From Odoribacter splanchnicus DSM 20712 (lineage in GTDB: Bacteria; Bacteroidota; Bacteroidia; Bacteroidales; Marinifilaceae): DNA of 64,000 bases. Below are positions 20,019-44,515 of this stretch, piece after piece. The DNA lies in contig NC_015160.1 of assembly GCF_000190535.1 (NCBI RefSeq), forward strand, positions 1,984,001 to 2,048,000, read 5' to 3'. The notes under the pieces are model-generated. The model ran no database searches. It saw only the letters and a program-made list of their open reading frames with translations, and had not been told where the DNA came from. A program made the position numbers and the translations under genes. The stretch's first letter is position 1, and the number at the start of each line of letters is the position of its first letter.

Positions 20019-21686
20019 TTAGAATTTTAAAGATAAACCTAGCGTATATATGGTCGGGTCGAGCGCGCTTCTCGAAATAGATGTCAGAGAAGTCCCGTTC
20101 CAGGATTCCGGATTCAAACGTCTTTTCTGAGAACCCCACCACCAGATATTCTGAATCTGTGCATTGATACTCATTCCTGAAATAAAAGCTTTTTTTAGCC
20201 AACGTTCCGGCAAATTATAGGACAGGGTTACCTCCTTCAGCTTTATGTAATTCGCTTTTTTGATGTGTTTATCGGCAGCATACCACAAATAGGTATAGTT
20301 GGTACTGGCATTTCTCATAAAGGCCGGAGCTTTATCGGGATCGTCGGAATCTTCCGGAGATTTCCAGTAATTCCGGATACTCCTGTCCACATTCGTAGTT
20401 CCGGTTGTCGACGTGAAGTATTTAGGCATGACATCCCTCATCACATGTCCGCCGTAATACAGAAACATAAAAGAAAGATCGAAACCTTTATAAGTCAGCA
20501 TATTCGACATAGATGCAGAATAGGGAGGTATACTTGTTCCGGAGCGTACCAGATCCTCGACCGTCAGGTCTGCGAGCGATTTCACGATCGTTCCGTCCTT
20601 TTTATAAGCCTGAGGATTTCCACTCTCGTCCAATCCGGCCCAACGTACACTGAATAAAGTTCCCATTGCCATCCCTTCTCTCGTATTCGTACCGCTGATA
20701 TAACTGGAAACGGAGTTAGAACTGTTTTCCAGTTTTGTGATCCGGTTTTTATTGTAACTGAAATTAATATTCGTTGCCCAGCGGAAGTCTCTTGTCTGTA
20801 TATTCACACTGTTCAATACAATCTCATAACCGTGGTTGTACATCTCGGCATAGTTCATCGTCAGAGAACCCCAACCGGAAGTCGGGTCTGTAGCGATCGA
20901 CCCCAGCAAATCCGAAGTATTTTTCGCATAATAGTCGAACGATCCTCCCAAACGGTTGTTAAAGAAGCTGAAGTCGATACCCAGATTGGTCTGGTTGGTT
21001 CTTTCCCAGCGTAAGCCGGAGTTTGGAGGACTGGATACGGAACTGGAATATTCACCGGTCCAGGAATTGATTCCGGCAGAATATACGATCATATAAGGTC
21101 CGCTTTGTTTTGCAATGTTACCGTTGATTCCTTTGGTAAAACGGATGGAAAGCTGATCCAGCCAGTCCATGTTTCCCATAAATTTCTCCTGTGCCATATG
21201 CCAGCTGACACCGACCGACCACAAAGGTTTGTACTGATACTTGGGATTCGTACCGAACAAATTGGACTGGTCCATACGGATACTCCCCGTAATGGCATAC
21301 CGGCGGTCATAAGTATAGGAAGCATTTCCATAAAACGAAACGTAACGGTCCTCTTTATCGCCGAAAGTATCGGGATAACCGTTCGGAACGTGGGTATAAG
21401 AATTATTGATTGCCTCCGTACCCTGTTGGGTCTGGTTCAGTGTTGCTTCATCCAGGTATTTATGTGCCAGGCTGACCTTGTCATAACCGTATTTCTCTAC
21501 ATAGGTACTGGTACTGTGTACAGCACGGCGTTCACCACCGGCGATCGCACTGACCTCGTGTTTTTCATCGAACGTGCGGTTGAAATTGATCTGAGCACGC
21601 AAAGTATAGGAATTTTTATCGCTTCTGGTCTCGTCGATATAACCCCCTTCCGGTATCAGATGTTTAATACTTCCATCGGCATTCAC
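20019..21686 (-). pseudogene. SusC/RagA TonB-dependent receptor, C-terminal half (after frameshift)
   Basis: This reading frame gives 555 residues of a SusC beta barrel (YVSFYGNASYTYDRRYAITG, WERTNQTNLGIDFSFFNNRL, ending YTLGLSLKF). It is open up to about 21765, where it would join the upstream half if one base were added to a run of six A on the coding strand (T at 21760-21765). With seven A the protein would read EKNNSLVQNYYDPQSYTLRN across the junction, which is normal SusC sequence. The ATG at 21686 is therefore an internal codon, not a true start. Either the gene is broken or the base is a sequencing slip. Confidence 0.85.
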
Positions 21687-23542
21687 GATGGATGAATTGT
21701 TGATCTGATTACGGAGCGTATAGGATTGGGGGTCATAATAATTCTGTACCAGCGAATTGTTTTTTCCAGCTGATACCGCAAATCCACATCCAGCCCTTCG
21801 ATAATCTTTACATTCAGGGCCACATTCACATTGGAATAGTTGCTCTTGCTGAAATAACTTTTCCGGTGCATTTCTTCCAATGGATAAAAAGACTCGTCGT
21901 TGAGCCCCAAGCCGACCAGGCGGTCTATCTCCGACTGGGATTTTGTCTGATACCAGTTCAATGGATTGCCGTCTTCATCGAATAAAGTCTGATAGGAAGC
22001 ACGTCCGCCGGTCAGATAAGTCGAAGGGGTAAAACCATTGTCATAATCCGCCTTTGTATAACTACCGACAACTCCCAGGTCAGCCCTCAGCCATTCAAAA
22101 AAGTTATAGGAGCTTCTCAGGTTAAAACCTACCCGGTCATTATCCTGCCCCTTCGTTTGCAAAATATTCTGCATATAATTGACGCTGGCGGAATATTGAT
22201 ATCTATCCGAACTTCCGCGTAAAGCCAGATTATGTTGATGAGTGATCGCAGTCCGGAGAAAATTATCTTTCAGTTCATTGTAATTGTTCCGGTTCCGGTA
22301 AATATTCAACTGCCGGTTCATTTCATCATCGCTGATATTCCCGGCTTCATTCTCGTACAACAAATTGAGCACTTCATTCTGATAATATCTTTTGTCAGAG
22401 CTACTGTAAGGAGAATGATAAGTATTGAACATTTCAACCTGCCAATCTACCAGTTCCTCACTATTCATGAGATTCAGATAATCCCTGTCATCCCGTAAAG
22501 GAGTGATAACAACAGAACCGTTGTATTCGATCGTACTCTTTCCGGCACCTTTCTTGGTCATAATCACAATCACCCCGTTTGCCGAACGTGATCCGTAGAT
22601 GGAAGCGGCCGTCGCATCTTTCAGAATAGTAATATTGGCAATTTCAGACGGATTGATCGCATCCAGGGAACCTTCATAGGGCACTCCGTCGACCACATAT
22701 AAAGGAGTGGAAACTCCGGAAATCGTAGCCTTACCACGAATTCTCAGATCTCCTTTGTAATTCGTCAGACCGGCAGCCATACCTTCTATACGTGAAATAA
22801 TACCAGGCTGCAATTTATGTTCGAAGTCTTTATTCGTTAAAACGGCAAACGAACCGGTAGCACGCTCCTTGGAAAGAGTCTGATAACCTGTTACCACCAC
22901 ATCGTTCAATTGGGTGGCCTCCGCCTCCATGGTGATGCGATAAGGTTCTTTTTTCAAAGGCATTTCCTTCGTTTTCAATCCCACAAACGATACGACCAGA
23001 GTTTCTTTTCCGATCAAATCCGGAGATACGCTCAACTGGAAATTCCCGTCTACATCCGAAACGGTCCCGATAACCTTATTGCCTTTTAAATAAACGGCAG
23101 CCCCGGGTAACGGACGTCCGTCCGCTTCCAGTATCAAACCTTTGATCACAATCTTTGTCTGCTGAGGAGCTGCTTCAAGCCGCTTTTGTTCGTAGATCAC
23201 CACCGTATTATCTACAATTTCATAAGACAGGACGGTCCCTTTCAGGCATTGTTTCAAAATCTCTTCCACATTCGCATTCTCTACCTTCACAGAAAGATTC
23301 TTAATATTACTGATTTGTTCGCTGTTGCAGATGATATCGAAAGAACTTTTTTTCTGAATTTCCAGTAGCACTTCTTCCAAAGTAACATTCTTCATTTTCA
23401 AATTAAAAGCCTGTGAAAATACATTTGCAGCCGCGGTAATGTTAAACGCCAGTATACATAGCAAACCGATACGCGTTACCAGCAACATTTTCTGCAATTT
23501 ACCCCGCCCGAAAAGCGGTTTAGTTCGCATTTTTTCATACAT
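21683..23542 (-). pseudogene. SusC/RagA TonB-dependent receptor, N-terminal half (frameshifted)
   Basis: This frame encodes 619 residues: signal segment (RIGLLCILAFNITAAANVFS), an STN signalling domain at about 45-120 (NLKMKNVTLEEVLLEIQKKS ... VLSYEIVDNTVVIYEQK), a CarboxypepD_reg-like domain (IKGLILEADGRPLPGAAVYL), the TonB-dependent plug (GDLRIRGKATISGVSTPLYV ... VVDGVPYEG) and the first barrel strands. It goes out of frame after YQLEK at 21760-21765 and ends in 22 foreign residues. The STN domain means the receptor should signal to a FecR/ECF pair, which fits the gene upstream. Confidence 0.88.
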
Positions 23543-24963: not shown

Positions 24964-26673
24964 TTACTGCTTTCTCAAGGTAGGCAATGCTCCGTTAAGT
25001 TCGTAACGCCACTCTGAACCTGCGTTCTGCAAGGCGGTGTTCATGGCATCGACGGCTTTCTGCCAGGTAACGCTGGTGCCGTCCACCTTCGTAGCTTCGG
25101 GGGCGGTGCCTACCTTTTTGTAGCCGATGCCTTGTTCCTGATTGTTCTTCCAATAGCAGGCGGTCACGGTGGTGGAGTTATATCCACAAAAGCCGCCGAT
25201 ATACACATTGACGGTGCTACTACCTGTACTGGTTACGTTGCCCGTGGCATAGCAGGCAAGGATGCGGCTTCCTCCGTTGAATCCCACCGCACCGCCGACA
25301 TCGATATTATTTTGGGAGGCTATTTCTAAGGTCACGTTGCCCGTGGCATAGCAAGCGGTCATGGTGGCATTCGAATTCGTCTGACCTGCCACGCCGCCGA
25401 CATCGACCATTCCCTTCACTGTGGCAGATGAACTGCATCCGGTGATGGAACCGCCCCATTGAGCACCCACCACACCGCCGACGTACACCGTGCCGCTGAC
25501 GCTGCCCGACACCGAGCAGTTTTCAATAGTGCCCCGGCTAAATCCTGCCACGCCGCCAGCCTGGCTCGACCCGTTATTGCTTGTTATCAGTACGCCCTCC
25601 ATCACCACGTTCTTCACCGTACCGGCATTACCGATATAGCCGAACAGACCCGCATATTTGTCATTTGTCGTAACGGTCAGCCCCGTGATGGTATGGCCGC
25701 CGCCGTCAAAGGTGCCCGTGTATGAGTTTTTGAAGCTTGTGCCTATCGGCGTCCAGCCTTTGCCCGTGAGGTCAATGTTTTTGTCGAGGGTAATGTTAAT
25801 GTCGGTCTTACCTCCGTTCACTAATTCGGCTACATTCATCAGGCCATCGGCGGAGGTCACGGTGTAGCTGCCGTTGCTCTCTATGGTATATCCCGGGTCT
25901 TTTGCCGCAGCGAGGGAGACGGTGTAGGTATATTCACCGCCCGCCTGCCAGTCGGTAGCATTCTTCATCTTATAAACGAAGGTCTTGCCGTTAGTGAAGG
26001 TGCAGGTAATGAAGGTCGTGCCAGCTGCCACACTTTGCGGGGCTACGAGGGCGGTGTAGGTGTTGCTGCCCTTGTCATACGGGGTGATTTCGGCTGGGTT
26101 GTCGCCTTCGGTGGAGAGCCCCGTCAGCTGCACGGATGCCAGCCCCTCGGTGTAGTCCGTCAGAACGATGGTCACTCGCGCCGTGCGGTGGGTGAAGCGG
26201 AGCGTGGGGCTACCGTAGGTCACCGTCTGTCCGTCGGCTACGATGAGGTCGCTGCCCTCAAAGTCTTTCTGGGCACTTTGGTTGGCTTTTACCTTTACCG
26301 CAGGTGGGGTTGTCTCGCCAGCGGTGTAGGGCCACCACGCTGTGACGGTGATGTCGTTGTGGTTGGTCCAGTAGTACGGGTCGGTGGAGGTCAGCGTGGC
26401 GCTGGTGGGGTCGGCGGTGGAGGGCGTCACGTTGTACGTCTTCACCGTGCCGTCCATCAGGACTGCCACGCTCTGCACACCCTCCCAGTCGCCGTCCACG
26501 GTGGAACGGGTATTGGCGATGGCTGTCGCAGCGGGGTTCAGCCCCGTGGCGGTAAAGACGATGGGTGTGCCTTCCGCCCCTTCCGGCAGGAAGCCCGCTT
26601 CGTCCTGCGTGCAGGCGGCAATGCCGAGCAGCAGGGCTATGGCTGCAGATGTATGGATGATTGTTCGTTTCAT
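24964..26673 (-). CDS. Fimbrillin-like lipoprotein with GLUG repeats (mosaic gene A)
   Basis: A 569-residue lipoprotein: signal MKRTIIHTSAAIALLLGIAA with Cys21. A conserved TR motif (R56 in IANTRS) marks a possible Arg-specific processing site, as in type V fimbrillins. Residues about 60-250 are a Mfa_like_1/fimbrillin domain (WEGVQSVAVLMDGTVKTYNV, RFTHRTARVTIVLTDY). After a linker (YTIESNGSYTVTSADGLMN) a beta-helical part carries several GLUG motifs (GGVAGFSRGTIENCSVSGSV, GGVVGAQWGGSITGCSSSAT, ACYATGNVT) and ends in WRYELNGALPTLRKQ. It is the last gene of the operon. It shares its signal peptide type with gene B and its body with gene D. An adhesin role is inferred. Confidence 0.85.
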   Translation of the reverse strand: MKRTIIHTSAAIALLLGIAACTQDEAGFLPEGAEGTPIVFTATGLNPAATAIANTRSTVDGDWEGVQSVAVLMDGTVKTYNVTPSTADPTSATLTSTDPYYWTNHNDITVTAWWPYTAGETTPPAVKVKANQSAQKDFEGSDLIVADGQTVTYGSPTLRFTHRTARVTIVLTDYTEGLASVQLTGLSTEGDNPAEITPYDKGSNTYTALVAPQSVAAGTTFITCTFTNGKTFVYKMKNATDWQAGGEYTYTVSLAAAKDPGYTIESNGSYTVTSADGLMNVAELVNGGKTDINITLDKNIDLTGKGWTPIGTSFKNSYTGTFDGGGHTITGLTVTTNDKYAGLFGYIGNAGTVKNVVMEGVLITSNNGSSQAGGVAGFSRGTIENCSVSGSVSGTVYVGGVVGAQWGGSITGCSSSATVKGMVDVGGVAGQTNSNATMTACYATGNVTLEIASQNNIDVGGAVGFNGGSRILACYATGNVTSTGSSTVNVYIGGFCGYNSTTVTACYWKNNQEQGIGYKKVGTAPEATKVDGTSVTWQKAVDAMNTALQNAGSEWRYELNGALPTLRKQ

Positions 26674-26695
26674 GATGCGTGTTGTTTAGGGTTCG

Positions 26696-28261
26696 TTATT
26701 GTTTCTTTTGCAATACGGGCAGACCGTCGGTGCCGAGTACCCACTGGTAGTCGCCAGCGGTGAGGGCGGTGTTCATGCCGTCGACGGCTGTCTGCCATTT
26801 CACTGTCGCGCCGTCCACCTTCGTGGCATCTACCTTTTCTCCATGATCACGGAATACTCCTTTCCCGACATTGCCTCCCCAATAACAGGAAGTTATAATT
26901 TTGTAGTTATAACGCACTATAGCTCCGGATTCATACTCTTTCAATGTGCCGTCGAACCAGCAAGCGGTGATTCTGCCATAATTTAAATCGGCTATACCAC
27001 AAGTTCTACCATATGCAGAAATTTTTCCCGTCACAGAGCAGGCAATGATTTGGCCATTATTTTGCTCCACTATTCCAGCTGCTGATCCACTATTGCCATA
27101 CAGATTCACATCTATGAGTTGTAAGTTCTTTATCACTCCACGTTCATTTAATAACCCAAAAAGTTCAGTAGTCGCTGCTGAAAAGTTTAATCCCGTAATG
27201 CGGTGTCCCTGCCCATTAAAGATGCCGGAGTAACCTGGCCATGTGCCTATCCGTGTCCATTCCCTACCCGTCAGGTCGATGTCGGCGGTGAGGGTGCAAT
27301 TTATCGATTCATCTTTTTGTACGGCTTTGTTCCATGCCAGCAAGCCGTCGGCGTTATAGACCGTGTAACTGCCGTCGTTCTGTATAGAATAACCCAAATC
27401 CTCAGCCTCACCGCTCTCGCTGCCACCGTCAGCCCAGTCACCGATAGTGCAGCCATCTAATGTCAGGCCAGTGGCGTTCACCTTAACGGTATATTTATAG
27501 CGACTGCCTGCTGCCAACACGACGTTGTTCTGCGGACGGAAGTAGAAGGTGCCGCTGCCGAGTTCCACCCGGATGAACTGCTTGCCTGCCGCAACGGTCT
27601 GCGGGGCGGTCAGTGCCTCGTAGGTGTTGCCGCTTGCATTGTAAGTCTTGATGGCGGTCGGGTTGCCGTTATCGGCAGACAGGCTTACGAGGCTCACCGT
27701 GGCACCGGCGACGCTCGTGAATCCCGTGCCGGGCTTCAGATCGATTGCCACGCGTGCCGTGCGGTGGGTAAATTCAAGTGTCGGGTCGTCAAATTTCACC
27801 GTCTGGTTTTCGGCAGAGATGAAGTCGCTGTTCTGGAAGTCAGCCAATTGGCTCTGGTCTTCAGCCACCTTCACGGCAGGCATCTGGGTGATGTCGGCAT
27901 TATCGAAGGGCCACCATGCCGATACGGTAATCGGGTCGCGGCTGGTCCAGTAGTGCGGGTCGTTCTCGCGTGAGAGTGTGGCACTCTTGAAATCGGTAGA
28001 AGCCGTTACGGTGTATTCCTTTACCGCATCGCCCGTCTTGAGTGCCACGGAAGTGACGCCCTGCCAGTCGCCGTCCACGGTGGCACGGGTTGATGGGGCT
28101 GCCTGCGGCGTTGCCTCTACGGACAGTCCGGTGGCACGGATGACTACGGGGTATTCTCCTTCGGGCAGACGGTTATCGTCGGCAAGTTCGTCCTGCGTGC
28201 AGGCGGCAAGGCCGAGCAGCAGGGCGATGGCTGCGGATGTATGGATGGTTGCTCGTTTCAT
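26696..28261 (-). CDS. Fimbrillin-like lipoprotein (mosaic gene B)
   Basis: A 521-residue lipoprotein with signal MKRATIHTSAAIALLLGLAA and Cys21, almost the same as gene A. After CTQDE the sequence changes to the second fimbrillin type (LADDNRLPEGEYPVVIRATG, WQGVTSVALKTGDAVKEYTV). The TR site is R59. The C-terminal part has a different GLUG-like set (AGIVEQNNGQIIACSVTGKI, CGIADLNYGRITACWFDGTL) and ends in GTDGLPVLQKKQ. The body is nearly identical to gene C. It starts 22 bases from gene A. Known: fimbrillin lipoproteins are processed and assembled on the cell surface. Inferred: this is a tip or variant subunit. Confidence 0.85.
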   Translation of the reverse strand: MKRATIHTSAAIALLLGLAACTQDELADDNRLPEGEYPVVIRATGLSVEATPQAAPSTRATVDGDWQGVTSVALKTGDAVKEYTVTASTDFKSATLSRENDPHYWTSRDPITVSAWWPFDNADITQMPAVKVAEDQSQLADFQNSDFISAENQTVKFDDPTLEFTHRTARVAIDLKPGTGFTSVAGATVSLVSLSADNGNPTAIKTYNASGNTYEALTAPQTVAAGKQFIRVELGSGTFYFRPQNNVVLAAGSRYKYTVKVNATGLTLDGCTIGDWADGGSESGEAEDLGYSIQNDGSYTVYNADGLLAWNKAVQKDESINCTLTADIDLTGREWTRIGTWPGYSGIFNGQGHRITGLNFSAATTELFGLLNERGVIKNLQLIDVNLYGNSGSAAGIVEQNNGQIIACSVTGKISAYGRTCGIADLNYGRITACWFDGTLKEYESGAIVRYNYKIITSCYWGGNVGKGVFRDHGEKVDATKVDGATVKWQTAVDGMNTALTAGDYQWVLGTDGLPVLQKKQ

Positions 28262-28283
28262 GATGCGTGTCGTTTAGGGTTCG

Positions 28284-29852
28284 TTATTGTCTCTTTTGTA
28301 ATACGGGCAGACCGTCGGTGCCGAGTATCCACTGGTAGTCGCCAGCGGTGAGGGCGGTGTTCATGCCGTCGACGGCTGTCTGCCATTTCACGGTCGCGCC
28401 GTCCACCTTCGTGGCATCTACCGTTCCTCCTTCAATACGGAATACTCCTTGCCCGGCATTGCCTCCCCAATAACAGGAAGTTATATCAGCGTAGTTATAA
28501 CGCACTATAGCTCCATTGTTAGACTCTTTCAATGTGCCGTCGAACCAGCAAGCGATGATATCGCCATAATTTGATTCGGCTATACCACAAGTTCCACCAT
28601 ATGATGCAGAAATTTTTCCCGTCACAGAGCAGGCAATGATTTGGCCATGATTTCGGCCCACTATTCCAGCAGTATTTCCACTACTGCCATACAGATTCAC
28701 ATCTATGAGTTGTAGGTTCTTTATCACTCCACGTTCACTTAAGAGTGAACCCAAAAATCCAGTATTATTCATTGCTGAAGAGTTAAATCCTGTAATGCGG
28801 TGTCCCTGCCCATTAAAGACGCCGGAGTAGAATGTAAATATGCCTGACCGTGTCCATTCCTTACCCGTCAGGTCGATGTCAGCGGCGAGGGTGCAATTTA
28901 TCGATTCATCTTTTTGTGAGGCTTCGTTCCATGCCAGCAGGCCGTCGGCGTTATAGACCGTGTAGGTCTTGGTGTTGCTGTCGTAGATGTAGCCCAAATC
29001 CTCGGCTGTGCCGCTCTCGCCGCCGCCGTCAGCCCATTCACCGATAGTGCAACCCTCTAACGTCAAGCCGGTGGCGTTCACCTTGACGGTGTAGATATAG
29101 CGGCTACCCGCTTCTAATACGACGTTGTTCTGCGGGCAGAAGTAGAAGGTGCCGCCGCCGAGTTCCACCCGGATGAACTGCTTGCCTGCCGCAACGGTCT
29201 GCGGGGCGGTCAGTGCCTCATAGGTGTTGCCGCTTGCGTTGTAAGTCTTGATGGCGGTCGGGTTGCCGTTATCGGCGGACAGGCTCACGAGGCTCACCGT
29301 GGCACCGGCGACGCTCGTGAATCCCGTGCCGGGCTTCAGCTCGATTGTCACGCGTGCCGTGCGGTGGGTAAATCCAAGTGTCGGGTCGTCAAATTTCACC
29401 GTCTTGTTTTCAGCGGAGATGAAGTCGCTGTTCTGAAAGTCAGCCAATTGGCTCTGGTCTTCAGCCACCTTCACTGCAGGCATCTGGGTGATGTCGGCAT
29501 TATCGAAGGGCCACCATGCCGATACGGTAATCGGGTCGCGGCTTGTCCAGTAGTGCGGGTCGTTCTCGCGTGAGAGTGTGGCACTTTTGAAATCGGTAGA
29601 AGCCGTTACGGTGTATTCCTTTACCGCATCACCCAACTTGAGTGCCACGGAAGTGACACCCTGCCAGTCGCCGTCCACGGTGGCCCGGGTGGAAGGGGCT
29701 GCCTGCGGCGTTGCCTCTACGGACAATCCGGTGGCACGGATGAGTACGGGGTATTCACCTTCGGGCAGACGGTTATTGTCTGCCAGTTCGTCCTGCGTAC
29801 AGGCTGCCAGTGAGAGGACGAGCGCTGCAAGTGCTAAAATTTTTGTCTTCAC
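28284..29852 (-). CDS. Fimbrillin-like lipoprotein (mosaic gene C)
   Basis: A 522-residue lipoprotein. It begins at a GTG (MKTKILALAALVLSLAAC, Cys18), preceded by ACAGATAT, a leader string also found before genes D and F, which supports this start. The body is type II like gene B (LADNNRLPEGEYPVLIRATG; GCTIGEWADGGGESG) and ends GTDGLPVLQKRQ, while the signal peptide is the type of gene D. So it combines modules differently from gene B. The strong identity to gene B at the DNA level implies recent duplication or gene conversion. Confidence 0.85.
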   Translation of the reverse strand: MKTKILALAALVLSLAACTQDELADNNRLPEGEYPVLIRATGLSVEATPQAAPSTRATVDGDWQGVTSVALKLGDAVKEYTVTASTDFKSATLSRENDPHYWTSRDPITVSAWWPFDNADITQMPAVKVAEDQSQLADFQNSDFISAENKTVKFDDPTLGFTHRTARVTIELKPGTGFTSVAGATVSLVSLSADNGNPTAIKTYNASGNTYEALTAPQTVAAGKQFIRVELGGGTFYFCPQNNVVLEAGSRYIYTVKVNATGLTLEGCTIGEWADGGGESGTAEDLGYIYDSNTKTYTVYNADGLLAWNEASQKDESINCTLAADIDLTGKEWTRSGIFTFYSGVFNGQGHRITGFNSSAMNNTGFLGSLLSERGVIKNLQLIDVNLYGSSGNTAGIVGRNHGQIIACSVTGKISASYGGTCGIAESNYGDIIACWFDGTLKESNNGAIVRYNYADITSCYWGGNAGQGVFRIEGGTVDATKVDGATVKWQTAVDGMNTALTAGDYQWILGTDGLPVLQKRQ

Positions 29853-29890
29853 TATATCTGTTATTTTATTACTTCGGTTCTTTCCGTTGC

Positions 29891-29910
29891 GGGCGGAACT
29901 TTTTCCGCCC
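29891..29910. repeat. 3'-flank hairpin of fimbrillin array, copy 2
   Basis: GGGCGGAA (29891-29898) with TTCCGCCC (29903-29910), extended by CCGT/ACGG outside, follows the stop of gene D. The surrounding bases (TTCGGTTCTTTCCGTTGC) match copy 1, so the duplicated unit extends past the stop codon. Confidence 0.7.
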
Positions 29911-29916
29911 GACGGT

Positions 29917-31596
29917 TTACTGCTTCCTCAAGGTAGGCAATGCTCCATTAAGTTCGTAACGCCACTCTGAGCCTGCGTTCTGCAAGGCGGTGTTCATGGC
30001 ATCGACGGCTTTCTGCCAGGTAACGTAAGTGCCGTCCACCTTCGTGGATTCGGGGGCGGTCTTATAGCCTCGTTCCTGATTGTTCTTCCAATAGCAGGCG
30101 GTCACGGTGGTGTAGCTATCTCCAAACAAGCCGCCGATATGCACATTGCCGGTGCTGCTACCCGTACTGGTTACGTTGCCCGTGGCATAGCAGGCAAGGA
30201 CGCGGCTTCCTCCGTTTAATCCCACTACACCGCCGCCAAAGTTATTCTTTTGGGAAGCTATTTCTAAGGTCACGTTGCCTGTGGCATAGCAAGCTGTCAT
30301 GGTGCCCCATTTTTCTCCTGCCACACCGCCGACATAGTGCTTTCCCTTCACAGTGGCAGAGGAGCTGCATCCGATGATGGAACCGGCCTTTTGTGAACCC
30401 ACCACACCGCCGACACAATCTGTGCCGCTGACGCTACCCGACACCGAGCAGTTTTCAATGGTGCCCCAGCTATATCCTACCACGCCGCCAGTACAGCCAA
30501 ACATGTGATTGCTTGTTATCTGTATGCCTTCCATCACCACGTTCTTCACCATACCAGCTCTATTGAGATAGCCGAACAGACCCACAAATTGGTCATTTGT
30601 CGTAACGGTCAACCCCGTGATGGTATGGCCGCCGCCGTCGAAAGTGCCTTTGTATGAGTTATCGAAGCTTGTGCCTATCGGCGTCCAGCCTTTGCCCGTC
30701 AGATCAATGTTTTTGTCGAGGGTAATGTTAATGTCGGTCTTACCTCCGTTCACTAATTCGGCTACATTCATCAGGCCATCGGCGGAGGTCACGGTGTAGC
30801 TGCCGTCGCTCTCTATGGTATAGCCCAGGTCTTTTGCCGCAGCGAGGGAGACGGTGTAGGTATATTCACCGCCCGCCTGCCAGTCGGTAGCATTCTTCAT
30901 CTTATAAACGAAGGTTTTGCCGTTAGTGAAGGTGCACGTAATGAAGGTCCTGCCAGCTGCCACACTTTGCGGGGCTACGAGGGCGATGTAGGTGTTGCTG
31001 CCCTTGTCATACGGGGTGATTTTATCTGGATTGTCATTCTCGGTGGAGAGACCCGTCAGCTGCACGGATGCCAGCCCCTCGGTGTAGTCCGTCAGAACGA
31101 CGGTCACCCGCGCCGTGCGGTGGGTGAAGCGGAGCGTGGGGCTACCATAGGTCACCGTCTGTCCGTCGGCTACGATGAGGTCGCTGCCCTCGAAGTCTTT
31201 CCGGGCACTTTGGTTGGCTTTTACCTTCACAGCAGAAGGGGTTGTCTCGCCCTCGGTGTAGGGCCACCACGCTGTGACGGTGATGTCGTTGTGGTTGGTC
31301 CAGTAGTACGGGTCGGTGGAGGTCAGCGTGGCGCTGGTGGGGTCGGCGGTGGAGGGCGTCACGTCGTACGTCTTCACCATGCCGTCCATCAGCACTGCCA
31401 CGCTCTGCACACCCTCCCAATTGCCATCCGCGGGGGCACGGGTGCCGGCGATGGCTTTCGCGGCGGGATTCAGCCCCGTGGCGGTGAAGACGATGGGTGT
31501 GCCTTCCGCCCCTTCCGGCAGAAAGCCCGCTTCGTCCTGCGTGCAGGCGGCGAGTGAGAGGGCGAGCGCTGCAAGTGCAAAAAATCTTATCCTCAT
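29917..31596 (-). CDS. Fimbrillin-like lipoprotein with GLUG repeats (mosaic gene D)
   Basis: A 559-residue lipoprotein with signal MRIRFFALAALALSLAAC (Cys18), the type seen in genes C and F. The body is type I like gene A (AGFLPEGAEGTPIVFTATGL, WEGVQSVAVLMDGMVKTYDV), with a TR site in IAGTRAPADG. The C-terminal domain has repeated GLUG motifs (GGVVGYSWGTIENCSVSGSV, GGVVGSQKAGSIIGCSSSAT, GGVAGEKWGTMTACYATGNV) and ends in WRYELNGALPTLRKQ. Compared with gene A, the GLUG loops differ in several places (NHMFGCTGG against NNGSSQAGG), so variation is concentrated in presumed exposed loops. Confidence 0.85.
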   Translation of the reverse strand: MRIRFFALAALALSLAACTQDEAGFLPEGAEGTPIVFTATGLNPAAKAIAGTRAPADGNWEGVQSVAVLMDGMVKTYDVTPSTADPTSATLTSTDPYYWTNHNDITVTAWWPYTEGETTPSAVKVKANQSARKDFEGSDLIVADGQTVTYGSPTLRFTHRTARVTVVLTDYTEGLASVQLTGLSTENDNPDKITPYDKGSNTYIALVAPQSVAAGRTFITCTFTNGKTFVYKMKNATDWQAGGEYTYTVSLAAAKDLGYTIESDGSYTVTSADGLMNVAELVNGGKTDINITLDKNIDLTGKGWTPIGTSFDNSYKGTFDGGGHTITGLTVTTNDQFVGLFGYLNRAGMVKNVVMEGIQITSNHMFGCTGGVVGYSWGTIENCSVSGSVSGTDCVGGVVGSQKAGSIIGCSSSATVKGKHYVGGVAGEKWGTMTACYATGNVTLEIASQKNNFGGGVVGLNGGSRVLACYATGNVTSTGSSTGNVHIGGLFGDSYTTVTACYWKNNQERGYKTAPESTKVDGTYVTWQKAVDAMNTALQNAGSEWRYELNGALPTLRKQ

Positions 31597-31634
31597 AATA
31601 TCTGTTGTTTTATTACTCTGGTTCTTTCCGTTGC

Positions 31635-31654
31635 GGGCAGAACTTTTTCCGCCC
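31635..31654. repeat. 3'-flank hairpin of fimbrillin array, copy 3
   Basis: GGGCAGAA (31635-31642) with TTCCGCCC (31647-31654) follows the stop of gene E. One stem position is mismatched compared with copies 1 and 2. Confidence 0.65.
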
Positions 31655-31660
31655 GACGGT

Positions 31661-33454
31661 TTACTGCTTCCTCAAGGTGGGCAATGCTCCGTTAAGTTCG
31701 TAACGCCACTCTGAGCCTGCGTTCTGCAAGGCGGTGTTCATGGCATCAACGGCGTTCTGCCAGGTAACGCCAGTGCCGTCCACCTTCGTGGCTTCGGGGA
31801 CGATGCCTTCCTTATTATAGCCGATGCCTTGTTCATGATTGTTCTTCCAATAGCCGGCGGTCACGGTGGTGTAGTTATCTCCCAAAAAGCCGCCGATATG
31901 CACATTGCCAGTGCCACTACCCGTACTGGTTACGTTGCCCGTGGCATAGCAGGCAAGGACGCTGCTTCCTGCGTTGAATCCCACCAGACCGCCGCCAAGG
32001 ATATTATTTATGGGGTCTATTTCTATGGTCACGTTGCCTGTGGCATAGCAAGCGGCCATGGTGGCACCCGAATTCGTCTCACCTGCCACGCCGCCGACCT
32101 GGACCATTCCCTTCACTGTGGCGGAGGAGCTGCATCCGGTGATGGAAGCCTCCCATTGAATACCCACCACACCGCCGGCGCATATCGTGCCGCTGACGCT
32201 GCCCGACACCGAGCAGTTTTCAATGGTGCCTCCCCAGCTAAATCCTGCCACGCCGCCGGCATAGCCCAACCTGTGATTGCATGTTATCTGTATGCCATCC
32301 ATCACCACGTTCTTCACCGTGCCAGCTTTACCGAGCCTGCCGAACAGACCCACATATTGGTCATTTGTCGTAACGGTCAGCCCCATGATGGTATGGCCCC
32401 CGCCGTCGAAGGTGCCGGTGTATGAGTTATAAAAGTTTGTGCCTATCGGTGACCAGTCTTTGCCCGTGAGGTCGATGTCGGCGGTGAGGGTGCAATTTAT
32501 CGATCTGTCTTTTTGTGCGGCTTCGTTCCATGCCAGCAGGCCGTCGGCGTTATAGACCGTGTAGGTATTGGTGTTGCTATCGTAGATGTAGCCCAACTCG
32601 GCTGCACCACTCTCGCCGCCGCCGTCAGCCCAATCACCGATGGTGCAACCCTCTAATGTCAAGCCAGTGGCGTTCACCTTAACGGTATATTTATAGCGGC
32701 TGCCCGCTTCTAATACGACGTTGTTCTGCGGACGGAAGTAGAAGGTGCCGCCGCCGAGTTCCACCTTAACGAACGGCTTGCCTGCCGCAACGGTCTGCGG
32801 GGCGGTCAGTGCCTCATAGGTGTTGCCGCTTGCGTTGTAAGTCTTGATGGCGGTCGGGTTGCCGTTATCGGCGGACAGGCTCACGAGGCTCACCGTGGCA
32901 CCGTCCACGCTTGTGAATCCCGTACCGGGCTTCAGTTCGATTGCCACGCGTGCCGTGCGGTGGGTAAATTCAAGAGTCGGGTTGTTAAATTCCACCTTCC
33001 GGTTCTCAGCAGAGATGAAGTCGCTGTTTTGGAAGTCAGCCAGTTTGCTTTGGTCTTCTGCCACCTTCACGGCAGGCATCTGTGTGATGTCGGCATTGTC
33101 GAAGGGCCACCATGCCGATATGGTAATCGGGTCGCGGCTGGTCCAGTAGTACGGGTCGTTCTCGCGTGAAAGCGTGGCACTCTTGAAATCGGTAGAAGCC
33201 GTTACGGTGTATTCCTTTACCGCATCGCCCATCTTGAGTGCCACGGAAGTGACGCCCTGCCAGTCGCCGTCCACAGCGGCACGGGTGGAAGGGACTGCCA
33301 GCGGCGTTGCTTCTACGGACAGTCCGGTGGCACGGATGAATACGGGGTATTCACCTTCGGGCAGACGGTTATCGTCAGCCAGTTCGTCCTGTGTGCAGGC
33401 GGCAAGGCCGAGCAGCAGGGCGGTGGCTGCGGGGATAAATAATCTATGTCTCAT
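31661..33454 (-). CDS. Chimeric fimbrillin/GLUG lipoprotein (mosaic gene E)
   Basis: A 597-residue lipoprotein with a third signal type (MRHRLFIPAATALLLGLAAC, Cys20). Residues 21 to about 326 are the type II fimbrillin part seen in genes B and C (LADDNRLPEGEYPVFIRATG ... ADGLLAWNEAAQKDRSINCT). At the shared string DIDLTGK, near base 32475, it switches to the GLUG C-terminus of genes A and D (YNSYTGTFDGGGHTIMGLTV ... ALPTLRKQ). It is thus a clear recombinant of the two families and the longest member. It is the first of the five tandem genes in transcription order, 34 bases after the short fimbrillin. Confidence 0.87.
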   Translation of the reverse strand: MRHRLFIPAATALLLGLAACTQDELADDNRLPEGEYPVFIRATGLSVEATPLAVPSTRAAVDGDWQGVTSVALKMGDAVKEYTVTASTDFKSATLSRENDPYYWTSRDPITISAWWPFDNADITQMPAVKVAEDQSKLADFQNSDFISAENRKVEFNNPTLEFTHRTARVAIELKPGTGFTSVDGATVSLVSLSADNGNPTAIKTYNASGNTYEALTAPQTVAAGKPFVKVELGGGTFYFRPQNNVVLEAGSRYKYTVKVNATGLTLEGCTIGDWADGGGESGAAELGYIYDSNTNTYTVYNADGLLAWNEAAQKDRSINCTLTADIDLTGKDWSPIGTNFYNSYTGTFDGGGHTIMGLTVTTNDQYVGLFGRLGKAGTVKNVVMDGIQITCNHRLGYAGGVAGFSWGGTIENCSVSGSVSGTICAGGVVGIQWEASITGCSSSATVKGMVQVGGVAGETNSGATMAACYATGNVTIEIDPINNILGGGLVGFNAGSSVLACYATGNVTSTGSGTGNVHIGGFLGDNYTTVTAGYWKNNHEQGIGYNKEGIVPEATKVDGTGVTWQNAVDAMNTALQNAGSEWRYELNGALPTLRKQ

Positions 33455-33488: not shown

Positions 33489-34376
33489 CTACAGGTCAGC
33501 GCCCACTTCTCCGCCGTCTATATCGTTCCACTTTGCAATGGTGGCTTCGCTGACTTCAAGGACTTTGTTGCGTACCTTGACGGTATAGGTATAGTTGTTG
33601 CCCGCCTGCAGTGCGCCTTCGGGCACGGTGAGTGTGGCATGATATTCCTGACCTTTGTAATTCACAACCAACGGCAGGGATGCAACTGTCTGCGGGAAGA
33701 GGATGATCGATGACGTGAGAACGCCGTCTGCCAAATTCATGGCCAGTTCTCCGGTCTGTGCCCCGTTGTCTGCGGTGGCAATACCGTCGGCCGTGTTGAA
33801 CGTACCGGTGAGTAACAATCCGTCCAGCGTGTAACGTTCAGGCTTGACCACGCTGAAATTCACGCCGTCGCCCGCCTCGAAGGTAAGGGTTATCCGGCTC
33901 ATGCGGTGGTGGAAGGAGTTGTCTTCACCGCCTTTGGCGGTTTTGTCGGTGAAGCTTACTACCGGGTTGTTTTTGTCTCCCGTGGCTCCTGTGGCAAAGA
34001 GGAAGTCGATGGCAGGCTGGTTCTGCTGCGCCGTGGCATCGGTCGTGGCTGTGAGGATGCCTCCCGCCGCGTTGTACGGATAGTAGGCGCGGAAAGTATG
34101 GGTCTTTGTATCTTCGATATAGATAACCTTTCCTTCTGCCTCAAATTTCCCGTTTTTCAGGATGAAAGGCACGTTGCCGTACTGGGAATCGTTGCCGATG
34201 TCGGTGATGCCGATACGGTCGCCGCCAGTCCAGGTGGTTCCGCTGGCGCGGGTGGCGGGGGCGATGTCGGCGGTAAACTGGGCGGCCACTGGGTCACCGT
34301 TCAGGTTCTCGTTGTCGTTGTTGCAGGCTGCCAGTGCGAGGACGAGCGTCGCAAGTGCAAAAAATCTTGTCTTCAT
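33489..34376 (-). CDS. Fimbrillin family lipoprotein (short)
   Basis: A 295-residue lipoprotein from the ATG at 34376 (MKTRFFALATLVLALAAC, Cys18). This start is chosen because ACAGATAT lies just upstream as in genes C and D; an ATG 12 bases earlier is possible. It has the TR site (APATRASGTTW) and a compact fimbrillin fold (GGDRIGITDIGNDSQYGNVP, FHHRMSRITLTFEAGDGVNF) without GLUG repeats, ending ATIAKWNDIDGGEVGADL. Its small size and position before the mosaic genes suggest the main structural pilin; this is inference. Confidence 0.85.
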   Translation of the reverse strand: MKTRFFALATLVLALAACNNDNENLNGDPVAAQFTADIAPATRASGTTWTGGDRIGITDIGNDSQYGNVPFILKNGKFEAEGKVIYIEDTKTHTFRAYYPYNAAGGILTATTDATAQQNQPAIDFLFATGATGDKNNPVVSFTDKTAKGGEDNSFHHRMSRITLTFEAGDGVNFSVVKPERYTLDGLLLTGTFNTADGIATADNGAQTGELAMNLADGVLTSSIILFPQTVASLPLVVNYKGQEYHATLTVPEGALQAGNNYTYTVKVRNKVLEVSEATIAKWNDIDGGEVGADL

Positions 34377-34396
34377 TATATCTGTCATTATATTAG

Positions 34397-35284
34397 TTAC
34401 AAATCGGCATTTACATCATCACCTTTCACTTCTTCCCAGCCGTTGATTTCGGCTCCGTCCACTTCCATGCCTTCGGGAGTCTCAACCAGCGTTCCGCCGA
34501 GGGTCAGCGATGCGCCCTTTCCGGTGTTGAACTCCTTGAGGGCTTCCGTGAGGTCGCTTTTCAGCATCGTGGGGGTCGGGTTGCCGTCCGCATAGCGGAT
34601 TTCACCCGTCAGCAGTTGTTCCGTGCCGGTCACACCCAACAGCCGCACCGTGGCTTTCCACTTGCCGGCATCGTCACCTTCGGTAATCTTGGTGAAGGGC
34701 AGCACGACGTTCGAAGCGGCTCCGTAGGTATCGGTAGCGAAGTCGAGTGTTCGGGCTGCACCCGTCAGATGGGCAACAATCTCCGTGATGCGTCCGGCGG
34801 CATCACCAGTAGGTTCGACGACAAGCGTCAGTTCGCGTACCTGCTGCTTCATTGCGGCGGTCAGCGGATAGTCCTTGTCTTTCCCGATGGTCACCTGTTC
34901 CGTATAGGTGAAGAACCATCCCGGGGCATTGTTCACAAAGGTATCCGTGCCTGCCCGGGTTCCCGTGGCTGCGGCAATGGTGGCTGTGGTGCCGTTCACC
35001 GTGATTCCTTCAGCCGGGTTCCACACCGCAAGGGTGTAGCTGCCCGGAGCAAACAGATGGTCGGGGGCATGGGTGGCGGAAGTCTCCGTACCCGTATAGT
35101 CGCCCATGGTGACCGTCCATGTGGCAGGTATGTCGATACCCTCACCGCGGGCCGACCAGTCGGCTGTTACCGCAATCTTCCCGTAGTCGGGGTGCGGCGT
35201 GTCATAAAGCGTGTCCTTCACGCAGGAAGAGAGCAGCACGGCGGCTGCCATTCCCATCATATTTATATATTGTTTTGCTTTCAT
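34397..35284 (-). CDS. FimB/Mfa2-like fimbrial anchor lipoprotein
   Basis: A 295-residue lipoprotein: MKAKQYINMMGMAAAVLLSS with Cys21, then VKDTLYDTPHPDYGKIAVTA, the typical FimB/Mfa2 (DUF1812-type) N-terminus. Two transthyretin-like halves follow (APGSYTLAVWNPAEGITVNG; QQVRELTLVVEPTGDAAGRI). In Porphyromonas, Mfa2 and FimB anchor the pilus and limit its length. It lies between the DUF3575 gene and the fimbrillins, as in other Bacteroidales pilus operons. It ends in a very similar way to the short fimbrillin (DVNADL against EVGADL). Confidence 0.8.
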   Translation of the reverse strand: MKAKQYINMMGMAAAVLLSSCVKDTLYDTPHPDYGKIAVTADWSARGEGIDIPATWTVTMGDYTGTETSATHAPDHLFAPGSYTLAVWNPAEGITVNGTTATIAAATGTRAGTDTFVNNAPGWFFTYTEQVTIGKDKDYPLTAAMKQQVRELTLVVEPTGDAAGRITEIVAHLTGAARTLDFATDTYGAASNVVLPFTKITEGDDAGKWKATVRLLGVTGTEQLLTGEIRYADGNPTPTMLKSDLTEALKEFNTGKGASLTLGGTLVETPEGMEVDGAEINGWEEVKGDDVNADL

Positions 35285-35300: not shown

Positions 35301-36401
35301 TTAGAATAACTTCCATACCAATGTCACACCGGCATTGATGGGGCCCCACCAATCTTTTGTCTCGTTGCCGTGGCGTACACGCACGCCGTCGATGACCTCA
35401 TATTTCTCATAGTCGGCATTCAGGTAGCCCAGACCGAGGTTGAAATCAAGAGCCAGTGCCTTGTTCAGCCGCAGCTGGTGGCCGGCGGTGATGCCGCCAC
35501 CCATCAGGTCGCCCTGTTTGCCTGTTTCGGAGAGCTTGTAGTTGAACTGTCCGGCCTTGAACAGCGCGCCCAGATACCAGGCTTTCTTCTCACCCATATA
35601 GTAACGCACTTCCGGAGCCACTTCCCAGAGTGCATAGCGGCGGTCCTTGTCGCTCCACGTCCATGAAGTCCACGAGCCGTTTACGGCAATGCCCCACGAT
35701 GGGCAGATGCGCCATTCCACGCCAAGGTCGGGTGTCAGGGTAGCCCAGCGCAGCAGGTTGGCACGCAGGGAGAGATGATAATCAGTTGTGATTTTGGTTT
35801 CCGACGGCGTGTCGGCAAGTGTATTTTGTTGAGCGGCTTTCTCGGCTTCTGCCTTTTCAGCGGCAAGTCGGGCTTCTTCCGCCTTGCGCTGCTCTTCGGC
35901 AAGCCGTTCCTGTTCGGCACGCTTCTCGGCTTCCAGTCGTTCGGCTTCCGCCTTGCGTCGTGCTTCCGCTTCCGCATCCGTCACGGCTGTTTCCTTGACC
36001 GGTACCGTCAGGCGCACGGTGACAAAATCACCCTCAGTCGCATGGTTGCGGGTAATGAAATTCTCCTCTTTTATTTCCGCACGGATAATCAGTTCGGATT
36101 TCACACGGTTGGCACGGATCTTCGCCGTGGCAAGGTTCTCGGCTTCACTGCCCAGTGAATTACAGTATCCGTCAACCAGTAGCGGCAGCTTGCCGTCAAG
36201 AATTGTGGTTTTGTTGTTTTCGATACATTCCAACAGGCGGGCAAGTTCCGTGTCATTGCCATTCCAAGGCACGTAGAACATGTCCTTCTGCGGAACGAAG
36301 CGGAAGGTGTAAACTGTGTCTGTTTTCTGCTGCGCAAAAGCCGGAAAAGCTGCCGATGCCAGCCACGAAAACAAAATGAAGAATAGGATTCTTTTGCTCA
36401 T
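35301..36401 (-). CDS. DUF3575 outer-membrane protein with OmpA-like and coiled-coil parts
   Basis: A 366-residue protein with signal peptide (MSKRILFFILFSWLASAAFP, then AFAQ). Residues about 25-135 resemble an OmpA-like domain (LLVDGYCNSLGSEAENLATA, KIRANRVKSELI). Residues about 140-195 form a highly charged Ala/Glu/Arg coiled coil (AEARRKAEAERLEAEKRAEQ). The C-terminal DUF3575 barrel follows (LRANLLRWATLTPDLGVEWR ... INAGVTLVWKLF). Such proteins head fimbrillin operons and probably anchor or secrete the fimbrial lipoproteins. It is the first gene after the regulator on the same strand. Confidence 0.85.
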   Translation of the reverse strand: MSKRILFFILFSWLASAAFPAFAQQKTDTVYTFRFVPQKDMFYVPWNGNDTELARLLECIENNKTTILDGKLPLLVDGYCNSLGSEAENLATAKIRANRVKSELIIRAEIKEENFITRNHATEGDFVTVRLTVPVKETAVTDAEAEARRKAEAERLEAEKRAEQERLAEEQRKAEEARLAAEKAEAEKAAQQNTLADTPSETKITTDYHLSLRANLLRWATLTPDLGVEWRICPSWGIAVNGSWTSWTWSDKDRRYALWEVAPEVRYYMGEKKAWYLGALFKAGQFNYKLSETGKQGDLMGGGITAGHQLRLNKALALDFNLGLGYLNADYEKYEVIDGVRVRHGNETKDWWGPINAGVTLVWKLF

Positions 36402-36600: not shown

Positions 36601-37728
36601 TTATTCCGCCTCTGTTTTCCTCCATTTGACAGGGGTACAGCCCGCATTTTCCTTGAACAGCCTTATAAAATGGCTTGGTGACAAAAAACCGGATTTCTCG
36701 GAGATGTCGGCTATCGTCAACCTCGGATATCGCGCAAGCAGACGTTTCGCATATTCTATACGAAGTCCGGTAATCCAATCGCGGAACGACATGTCATACG
36801 TAGTTTTGATGTACCCGGACAGGTAGGTGCGGTTGGTATGAAGCACATCTGAAAGCTCCTTTATGGTAAGGCCGGGCCGGATATAACCGTCCGCATCGAT
36901 CCAACCTTTGATTTTTTTCGCCATTTCGGCATGGAAAAAAGGAGTATCCTGCCTCTGTGCCTGTTCCCGGTTTGTGGTGTCACACAGGTCTTCCTCTTCA
37001 GAAGTCATGCCATCTTCCATCGCGTTTTCCACCTGTTCGTAAAACAGCAGATAGTTCAGATAGCAAAGGAAGAGATAAATGTAGAACGGTACCGATGACA
37101 GAATCCAGATATAGACGTATTCATCAGGCAGGAATGTCAGCAGTCCGCATCCCACCCCGAATGTGACAGCCCAGTAGGTGAAAATGGAAAGCCATTTGAT
37201 ATAGGCACCGATGTCGTCCGCACGGGTGTCATCGAAAATGCGGATGACCCTGTGATAGGCCCGGAGAAGCCTACGGGTCAGGAACAGCCCATAGATAACC
37301 AACCATGCGGCCAAGGCAAACATCACCGTTGTCTGTAAACCACCTTTTGGTAACAACAGCAGAACGATGCCGGAAAGGATGGAAAACAGTATCCATAGAC
37401 AGATATGCGTCCGTAACCGACATTTGGTGATATAAAAGCGGTCAAGCAGAGTGGTGAGGGCCGAACTGAACAACCAGTAGCACAAAAAATAGGTGGACAG
37501 GTTCATCAGGATGGCGGCATCGGTATTCTTGAACCTGATTCCCAAAAAGAAATGTACCGAATAGTTGGCGGCAAGTAACAGTATGGCTACCCCCATAATT
37601 CGCCGGGAACGCAGATAATTATTGAAAATGGCTTTTTCCGGGGTTGGAGCCAACAAAAAATAAAAGCCGAAGAACAACATCAACGGTAGCGCAATACAAA
37701 GTGAATAACTGTATATAGATGGTTCCAT
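36601..37728 (-). CDS. Membrane AraC-family regulator (7TM-type sensor)
   Basis: A 375-residue protein. The first about 230 residues contain seven hydrophobic segments (SLCIALPLMLFFGFYFLLAP, THICLWILFSILSGIVLLLL, YVYIWILSSVPFYIYLFLCY). The C-terminal about 100 residues are an AraC DNA-binding domain with two helix-turn-helix units (LTIKELSDVLHTNRTYLSGY; ADISEKSGFLSPSHFIRLFK). Such regulators sit next to fimbrial operons in Bacteroidales and probably control the genes at 24.9-36.4 kb, which begin about 200 bases downstream. The signal sensed is unknown. Confidence 0.88.
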   Translation of the reverse strand: MEPSIYSYSLCIALPLMLFFGFYFLLAPTPEKAIFNNYLRSRRIMGVAILLLAANYSVHFFLGIRFKNTDAAILMNLSTYFLCYWLFSSALTTLLDRFYITKCRLRTHICLWILFSILSGIVLLLLPKGGLQTTVMFALAAWLVIYGLFLTRRLLRAYHRVIRIFDDTRADDIGAYIKWLSIFTYWAVTFGVGCGLLTFLPDEYVYIWILSSVPFYIYLFLCYLNYLLFYEQVENAMEDGMTSEEEDLCDTTNREQAQRQDTPFFHAEMAKKIKGWIDADGYIRPGLTIKELSDVLHTNRTYLSGYIKTTYDMSFRDWITGLRIEYAKRLLARYPRLTIADISEKSGFLSPSHFIRLFKENAGCTPVKWRKTEAE

Positions 37729-41607: not shown

Positions 41608-41620
41608 TTACTCGTATTTG
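41554..41620. repeat. Three 24-bp-spaced direct repeats at Fic start
   Basis: Three copies of a 19-base unit lie at 41554-41572, 41578-41596 and 41602-41620. The first two read GTGCAAATACTCGTTTTTA exactly; the third is GCGCATTTACTCGTATTTG. The constant 24-base spacing places them on similar faces of the helix. They overlap the first codons of the longest Fic frame and lie just downstream of its -7 box. The core ACTCGTTTTTA also occurs at the iteron region (52609). They could be Fic/AbiEi-like operators or iterons. Confidence 0.75.
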
Positions 41621-41623
41621 TTG

Positions 41624-41631
41624 CAAAAATA
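41624..41631 (-). promoter_or_regulatory. -7 box (TATTTTTG) for fic gene
   Basis: The reverse complement of CAAAAATA matches TAnnTTTG. A transcript starting some 7-10 bases downstream would begin inside the third direct repeat. That favours one of the later Met codons as the start. Confidence 0.4.
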
Positions 41632-41649
41632 CAATATTTGTTCCGATAA

Positions 41650-42288: not shown

Positions 42289-42301
42289 AAGACAAGGGAT
42301 A

Positions 42302-43132: not shown

Positions 43133-43135
43133 TAC

Positions 43136-43465
43136 TTATTTACCTTTTCTTAATTCATCAAGCCTCTGCATCGCACCGCTGAACTTCTCACTAAACATCA
43201 TATCATCGGGCAAAACAAACCAGGTGGGAATACCTCTCGACTGTGGATTACCTATACATTCATCTTGCCCGTTCTGTTTGCGGTAATCGTCCCATTCACT
43301 ATAAGCGATGTTCCAACGGATACCTAATTTATAGGTATTTTCCCATTTAATAATAGCCAGTGAATAGGCCGGATCATCTTTGCCGTCATAAATCACTTCT
43401 ACAACTTCAACCACCCCTTTAGGGGAATTTATAAACTTCGGATTTTTATACGAATAAGTGCTCAT
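43136..43465 (-). CDS. Hypothetical protein in operon with RhuM gene
   Basis: A 109-residue soluble protein starting MSTYSYKNPKFINSPKGVVE. It contains an aromatic segment (YKLGIRWNIAYSEWDDYRKQ) and GNPQSRGIPTWFVLPDDMMF. Only three bases separate its stop from the RhuM ATG, so the two are almost certainly co-translated. I do not recognise the family. Confidence 0.65.
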   Translation of the reverse strand: MSTYSYKNPKFINSPKGVVEVVEVIYDGKDDPAYSLAIIKWENTYKLGIRWNIAYSEWDDYRKQNGQDECIGNPQSRGIPTWFVLPDDMMFSEKFSGAMQRLDELRKGK

Positions 43466-43582
43466 GTCTTTTATTTTTTATTTATAGCACACAAAGATAC
43501 TCAAAAACAAATATATACATATATACATACGTATGATTAGCGTATAAAAACATTTATGGTTATTCTAATCTTTGATTAATTC

Positions 43583-43651
43583 CGGTACAGAAACAAAACG
43601 TACCGAAAGACGGAAACAGGATTTATTTCGGTACGCTTCCCCGATCGGTAC
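43583..43651. repeat. Four CGGTAC sites upstream of parA
   Basis: CGGTAC occurs at 43583, 43629 and 43646, and its reverse GTACCG at 43600, all within 69 bases. The cluster lies about 60-130 bases before the parA promoter. It could be part of a centromere (parS) or an operator set. Confidence 0.5.
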
Positions 43652-44511: not shown

Positions 44512-44515
44512 CCAT

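What the first reader, a model, noticed from the sequence alone, without database searches (positions are those of the whole stretch)
24964..33454. Five tandem fimbrillin genes built from interchangeable modules
Three signal-peptide types, two fimbrillin-domain types and two C-terminal types are combined differently in each gene. A = MKRTIIHT signal + type I + GLUG/TLRKQ. B = same signal + type II + LQKKQ. C = ALAAL signal + type II + LQKKQ. D = ALAAL signal + type I + TLRKQ. E = third signal + type II + TLRKQ. This looks like a locus that makes new surface adhesins by recombination between neighbours, possibly for antigenic variation or changing ligand choice.
Basis: partly seen in the sequence, partly recalled or inferred. 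Interest (0 to 1): 0.8.

Follow-up and report, generated by a model that had tools for sequence, protein, structure and literature searches.

The report
Mix-and-match tip genes of mobile pilus
A gut bacterium carries five pilus-tip genes that are patchworks of parts shared, almost letter for letter, with distantly related gut bacteria, which suggests that these bacteria trade and recombine the sticky ends of their surface hairs.

Summary
The genes follow anchor and stalk genes of a type V pilus and look like tip pilins. Relatives usually hold one pair, type II then type I: first type II and last type I in 24 of 24 loci with two or more complete tip genes. The window joins two cassettes, E-D and C-B-A. 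Blocks are identical over 947-1737 nt to Bacteroides or Parabacteroides loci, while lysS-gpsA is 66-70% identical. Swaps at the leader seam and the N/C seam occur at near-identity elsewhere, including one 765-nt C-domain tract on both pilin types. C-domains are predicted beta-helices and change fast. So recombination making new tips is supported, but the nearest donors seen are copies in other genera. Recent exchange between neighbours is not seen (longest shared exact tract 128 nt), and no programmed shuffling or antigenic switching was found.

The parts
31661..33454 (-). E: RHRLFIP leader, type II pilin domain, long GLUG C-domain; slot 1 of cassette 1
   Evidence: 1422-nt exact match 32815-31394 to L014
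29917..31596 (-). D: ALAAL leader, type I pilin domain, long GLUG C-domain; slot 2 of cassette 1
   Evidence: 1737-nt exact match 31606-29870 to L097; identical protein on 831 contigs
28284..29852 (-). C: stalk-like (ALAAL) leader, type II pilin domain, short C-domain; first gene of cassette 2
26696..28261 (-). B: KRATIHT leader, type II pilin domain, short C-domain; second gene of cassette 2
   Evidence: 947-nt exact match 28834-27888 (end of C into B) to L009
24964..26673 (-). A: KRTIIHT leader, type I pilin domain, long GLUG C-domain; last gene of cassette 2
33489..34388 (-). F: single-domain fimbrillin, probable stalk pilin
   Evidence: PF13149 E 4.4e-51; sequence match to solved BACOVA_04980, 3ufi; stalk role inferred
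34397..35284 (-). Mfa2-like anchor
   Evidence: PF08842 23.5 bits, cut-off 21.2
35301..36401 (-). DUF3575 protein, first gene of the presumed operon
   Evidence: PF12099 E 3.3e-36
36601..37728 (-). AraC-type regulator upstream of the pilus genes
   Evidence: PF12833 E 6.7e-20; regulator or its homologue upstream in most complete loci
33383..33430 (-). leader/lipobox seam of E (other copies: A 26599-26646, B 28187-28234, C 29787-29834, D 31531-31578)
   Evidence: repeat family D13
32438..32491 (-). N/C linker seam of E (other copies: A 25738-25791, B 27242-27295, C 28839-28892, D 30670-30723)
   Evidence: repeat family D11
29853..29916 (-). D-C spacer with hairpin: the join of the two cassettes (E-D spacer 31597-31660 is alike; C-B and B-A spacers are 22 nt)
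   Evidence: hairpins -19.1 to -21.8 kcal/mol, z -3.9 to -4.9

Best explanation
This is the tip-gene part of a horizontally spreading type V pilus locus. Anchor (Mfa2-like) and stalk (F) genes are constant. The genes behind them encode lipoprotein pilins whose N-terminal half would plug into the pilus and whose C-terminal beta-helix would show at the tip. A normal locus has one pair, a type II pilin then a type I pilin, so pilin type seems tied to a fixed place in the tip. Copies of the locus move between gut Bacteroidales and recombine with resident copies, most simply by ordinary homologous recombination. Crossovers fall at two short conserved seams (lipobox and linker), so leaders and C-domains are exchanged while pilin type stays tied to position. 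In this Odoribacter an E-D cassette and a C-B-A cassette have been joined, giving five genes that may offer several binding specificities on one stalk. Shown: the mosaic, the position rule in the loci examined, near-identity with other genera, the swaps, faster C-domain change. Inferred: tip location, ligand binding, RecA-type recombination, expression of all five.
For: Module switches. Position rule 24 of 24 loci with two or more complete tip genes. Exact tracts of 947-1737 nt with other genera against 66-70% for lysS-gpsA in seven carrier genomes. Of 1596 gene pairs, 21 have pilin domains at least 97% identical and 4 of these have C-domains under 75%; 3 pairs show the reverse. C type changes 5 times (3 forced) on the type II tree; pilin type changes 3 times (3 forced) on the GLUG tree. 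C-domain dN/dS above pilin dN/dS. Beta-helix models and fold match. The locus is on circular plasmid records of P. dorei and B. fragilis.
Against: No expression, tip location or ligand is shown. N-domain models are poor, so the pilin fold rests on Pfam. Only 2 of 72,556 plasmid records encode the anchor, so the vehicle for most copies is not known. The leader label is only weakly incongruent on the type I tree (6 changes, 1 forced). dN/dS contrast for D/E is not significant (p 0.21). Some loci are not independent (L031/L085 overlap; L024 and L053 have near-identical tip genes).
Confidence: 0.72

Rival explanations
1. The array is a working within-strain shuffling system: neighbouring genes recombine often to change the exposed adhesin (antigenic variation).
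For: Tandem paralogues with two shared seams; metagenomic proteins with in-frame internal repeats of the pilin end, as unequal crossover would give (P0241, P0242, P0243, could be assembly errors).
Against: Longest exact tract between any two of A-E is 128 nt (C/E), next 111 (A/D), while matches to other genera reach 1737 nt. E-D-like pairs keep their make-up in several genera.
Confidence: 0.12
2. Plain tandem duplication and divergence in one lineage, with little recombination; the modules only look swapped.
For: B and C are close relatives (N 94%, C 79% aa identity), and B could be a duplicate of C or the reverse.
Against: Identity jumps within genes; near-identical N on unlike C and the reverse; forced label changes on trees.
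Confidence: 0.06
3. A dedicated device does the diversification: the nearby resolvase-family recombinase, an invertible segment, or a diversity-generating retroelement.
For: A resolvase-family recombinase lies about 8 kb upstream of E at 41650-42288. Tip pilins of Bacteroides are reported as targets of such retroelements (cited in PMC12632263, passages).
Against: The recombinase lies in a segment shared with many plasmids, of which almost none encode this pilus (2 of 72,556 records). Inverted repeats in the three regions searched are short or weak, and the pair upstream of DUF3575 has the same orientation in L010 and L051. No reverse transcriptase among 29 window proteins scanned with Pfam (9, 10, 10); the rest of the window was not scanned and no search for template repeats was made beyond.
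Confidence: 0.05

Closest known systems
Type V pili of Bacteroidales (Mfa1/FimA class; anchor, stalk and tip pilins)
   Same: Fimbrillin-family lipoproteins with an Mfa2-like anchor; tip pilins often have an extra C-terminal binding domain (PMC12632263, passages)
   Different: Two fixed pilin types in order, exchangeable beta-helix C-domains, and here two cassettes in series
fimCDE allele exchange in Porphyromonas gingivalis
   Same: Tip-complex genes exchanged between strains with a breakpoint inside a gene, the 3' end of fimC (PMC5266723, passages)
   Different: There within one species and two types; here across genera and families, domain by domain, and between two slots
pMMCAT megaplasmid and p5482-type plasmids
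   Same: Mobile elements of gut Bacteroidales with fimbrial genes (PMC8102008 and PMC12056005, passages); the window at about 41.4-51.4 kb is about 97% identical to 98-kb records of that size and to the 33-kb B. thetaiotaomicron VPI-5482 plasmid (both plasmid names assigned by size or recall)
   Different: Their fimbrial locus is a different one (F2/DUF5119); the tip array studied here is not in them
GLUG beta-helix of 3n6z (BACOVA_03286) and IgA1 proteases
   Different: Here fused to a pilin domain; a shared fold shows no function

Membership tests
Type V pilus locus | Fimbrillin-family (Mfa_like) pilins | tested here: met
   A-F all above the PF13149 cut-off
Type V pilus locus | Anchor subunit gene beside the pilins | tested here: met
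   Mfa2 family, 23.5 bits against cut-off 21.2
Type V pilus locus | Lipobox leader and conserved Arg for protease maturation | tested here: inconclusive
   Cys and a following Arg invariant in both alignments (C18, R53; C21, R59); export and cleavage not shown
Type V pilus locus | Tip pilin with extra C-terminal domain | tested here: inconclusive
   A-E have an extra C-domain; tip position not testable here
Site-specific shufflon or invertible locus | Recombination sites as inverted repeats at the variable genes | tested here: not met
   Only short or weak pairs in three regions searched around the locus; direct seams are coding sequence
Diversity-generating retroelement | Reverse transcriptase nearby | tested here: inconclusive
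   None among 29 window proteins scanned; not every window ORF was scanned
Diversity-generating retroelement | Template and variable repeats with adenine-specific changes | not tested
   -
Antigenic variation by silent cassettes | One expressed gene and silent, start-less copies | tested here: not met
   All five are intact ORFs with leaders; expression not tested

The most novel reading that the evidence does not exclude
Gut Bacteroidales share one order-wide pool of beta-helix binding domains that are recombined onto two fixed tip positions of a mobile pilus. A strain can stack whole tip cassettes in series, so that one stalk is served by several interchangeable tips, and adhesion specificity becomes a tradable trait across families.
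Probability: 0.4. Interest if true: 0.75.

Novelty: new variant of a known kind. Interest (0 to 1): 0.58.

Why it matters
If right, what a gut Bacteroidales cell sticks to would not be a species trait but a mosaic assembled from a shared pool. Near-identical natural pairs exist: L025/L100 (same pilin domain, different C-domain), L025/L027 and L097/L051 (same C-domain, different pilin domain). They would let one test directly which part sets ligand choice and which part sets position in the pilus. Little is known about what these pili bind (PMC12632263, passages).

Tried and rejected
Strain comparison proper was not possible. The genome collections hold one genome per species (tool descriptions), metagenome scans had a cap of zero, and two viral-contig scans gave no confirmed relative. 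A sample of 393 genomes of the order held the anchor gene (E up to 1e-60) only in the window's own genome. Three genus searches (E up to 1e-100) found it in 11 of 158, 4 of 61 and 3 of 38 genomes; several of these hits are only 59-69% identical.

Rejected: an invertible promoter upstream of DUF3575 (14-nt pair at 36399 and 36481); L010 and L051 have the same orientation. A scan for a Bacteroides promoter pattern (recalled) gave 5 hits against 1.7 expected, none within 24.9-38.6 kb, so operon structure rests on gene spacing only.

Rejected: treating the short C-domain as unrelated to GLUG. A sequence search of solved structures with an alignment of A/D relatives found nothing at E up to 0.01; the match came by fold. 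NCBIfam had no family at E up to 0.001 for seven proteins scanned.

Weak results kept: the leader label on the type I tree needs 6 changes but well-supported branches force only 1. A regex labelled L099's second gene 'short' and three leaders 'other'; relabel them. A consistency-check line in the script was inert and tested nothing. L010's second gene (no readable leader) was left out of the type I tree and of the pair counts.

Papers. Passages only: PMC3111987, PMC8102008, PMC12056005, PMC12632263, PMC5266723, PMC10465488. Search listing only: PMC5789003, PMC5954841. The retroelement paper cited as PMC12787319 is not held. I saw no paper on exchange of beta-helix domains in mobile type V pili in the listings; I claim nothing beyond those searches.

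Full report
What is there. The window is bases 1,984,001-2,048,000 of a one-contig genome of 4,392,288 bases, the size published for the Odoribacter splanchnicus type strain (PMC3111987, passages). On the minus strand, from 36401 down to 24964, run DUF3575, an Mfa2-like anchor, a single-domain fimbrillin F, and then E, D, C, B, A. A-E each have a lipobox leader, an Mfa_like_1 pilin domain and a C-terminal domain.

How relatives are built. One protein scan of genome contigs gave 28 loci; plasmid records and searches of genomes and genera added more. Of 39 loci outside the window, 24 have at least two complete tip genes. In all 24 the first has pilin type II and the last has type I with a GLUG-type C-domain. 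The first gene's C-domain is long in 12 and short in 12. The last gene's leader is ALAAL in 9 (always after a long-C gene), KRxTIHT in 14 (11 after a short-C gene, 3 after a long-C gene) and unreadable in 1. The other 15 are fragments, split or single genes, or masked, and say little; L031 and L085 overlap, and L024 and L053 have near-identical tip genes, so the loci are not all independent. Among the loci with complete genes only the window holds two cassettes: II-I (E-D), then II-II-I (C-B-A). The second part resembles Parabacteroides massiliensis (L009: C', B, A behind F). At the join, C has a stalk-like leader behind the D spacer, like the leaders of type II genes in L023 and L034.

Where the pieces come from. 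The best match changes along the locus and within genes. The lysS-gpsA region of the same window is 66-70% identical in its main piece (short pieces up to 77%) in seven carrier genomes. The D protein is found identical on 831 contigs, the longest 6.7 Mb, larger than this genome. No identical copy of C is among the 120 best hits. So the locus is horizontally shared and mosaic, and this array looks uncommon. In contrast, the longest exact tract between any two of A-E is 128 nt (C/E), then 111 (A/D): recent gene conversion between neighbours is not seen.

Swaps elsewhere. Among 57 tip genes (1596 pairs), 21 pairs have pilin domains at least 97% identical in DNA; 4 of these have C-domains under 75%. 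Three pairs have C-domains at least 97% identical with pilin domains under 80%. Clearest: L097's first gene (type II) and the second gene (type I) of the P. dorei plasmid share a 765-nt exact tract in the C-domain while their pilin domains are 59.5% identical. L025 and L100 share a type II domain (98.5%) with unlike C-domains (53%). Seven pairs have pilin domains at least 96% identical but leaders under 68%. In the protein database, of the 120 best hits to E's pilin domain 113 carry the long C-domain and 7 do not; 5 of the 7 are clean exchanges (98-99% to E's pilin domain, 84-89% to B's C-domain), the other 2 have internal repeats. Of the 120 best hits to C, 92 have the RHRLFIP leader, 16 KRxTIHT and 12 ALAAL-like, three of these called by eye. 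On trees, C type changes 5 times on the type II pilin tree of 30 genes (3 forced by strong branches), and pilin type changes 3 times (3 forced) on the GLUG tree of 41 genes.

Selection. Pairwise dN/dS (counting method) for B/C is 0.15 in the pilin and 1.73 in the C-domain (difference p 4e-8; C-domain above 1: one-sided p 0.047, uncorrected). A/D: 0.30 and 0.75 (p 0.022). A/E: 0.44 and 1.31 (p 0.011, but their pilin types differ). D/E: 0.45 and 0.84 (p 0.21). Medians over pairs with dS 0.03-0.5: short C 1.44 (32 pairs) against pilin 0.28; GLUG in type II genes 1.01 (51) against 0.25; GLUG in type I genes 0.72 (263) against 0.44. Recombination and indels can bias this, so I read it as fast C-domain change, not as proof of positive selection.

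Mechanism. The simplest account is homologous recombination between incoming and resident copies, with short conserved coding patches as crossover points and selection keeping pilin type tied to position. No invertible segment was seen in the regions searched. The nearest recombinase lies in a segment shared with many plasmids, while only 2 of 72,556 plasmid records encode this pilus anchor. The pair rule suggests that types II and I occupy successive places in a tip complex, as Mfa3-5 form a tip complex in P. gingivalis (abstract in listing); this is inference.

Verdict. Closest precedent: exchange of fimCDE types in P. gingivalis (PMC5266723, passages). Exchange across families, domain-sized exchange between two tip slots, and stacked cassettes make this a new variant of a known kind.

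Noticed in passing
41400-51400: Segment with resolvase, RhuM, ParA, a second pilus locus (fimbrillin, DUF5119, DUF3575) and an AAA ATPase is about 97% identical to 98-kb and 33-kb Bacteroidales plasmids, although it lies in a chromosome.
   Followed up: partly
24679: Homology to 12 other loci (L009, L010, L011, L013, L014, L016, L018, L019, L021, L028, L030, L097) stops here, about 19 codons into what is a DUF2589 gene in L014; L035 departs 4 nt later. The acquired block seems truncated at this point.
   Followed up: partly
20019-23542: A TonB-receptor-like gene appears as two ORFs that overlap at 21683-21686, as after a frameshift.
   Followed up: no
L023, L034: Stalk-type leader (MTDIMKTRFF) is fused to a type II tip body; in L023 no stalk gene F was found between anchor and tip gene.
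   Followed up: partly
L010, L021, L030, L032, L081: Tip genes that are split, truncated or lack a readable leader: decaying copies or sequencing errors.
   Followed up: no
proteins P0241, P0242, P0243: Metagenomic tip proteins with an in-frame repeat of the end of the type II pilin domain: unequal crossover products or assembly errors.
   Followed up: partly
genome positions about 619-623 kb and 4250-4253 kb: Two further fimbrillin loci in the same genome with similar scores and sizes, in opposite orientation.
   Followed up: no
spacers after E, D and A: Each long-C gene is followed by a strong hairpin without a run of T; role unknown.
   Followed up: partly
gene A, 24964-26673: A 569-aa fimbrillin flanked by integrases was reported specific to early-colonising Bacteroides vulgatus after faecal transplant (PMC10465488, passages). 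A is also 569 aa; a length match only, so a lead.
   Followed up: no
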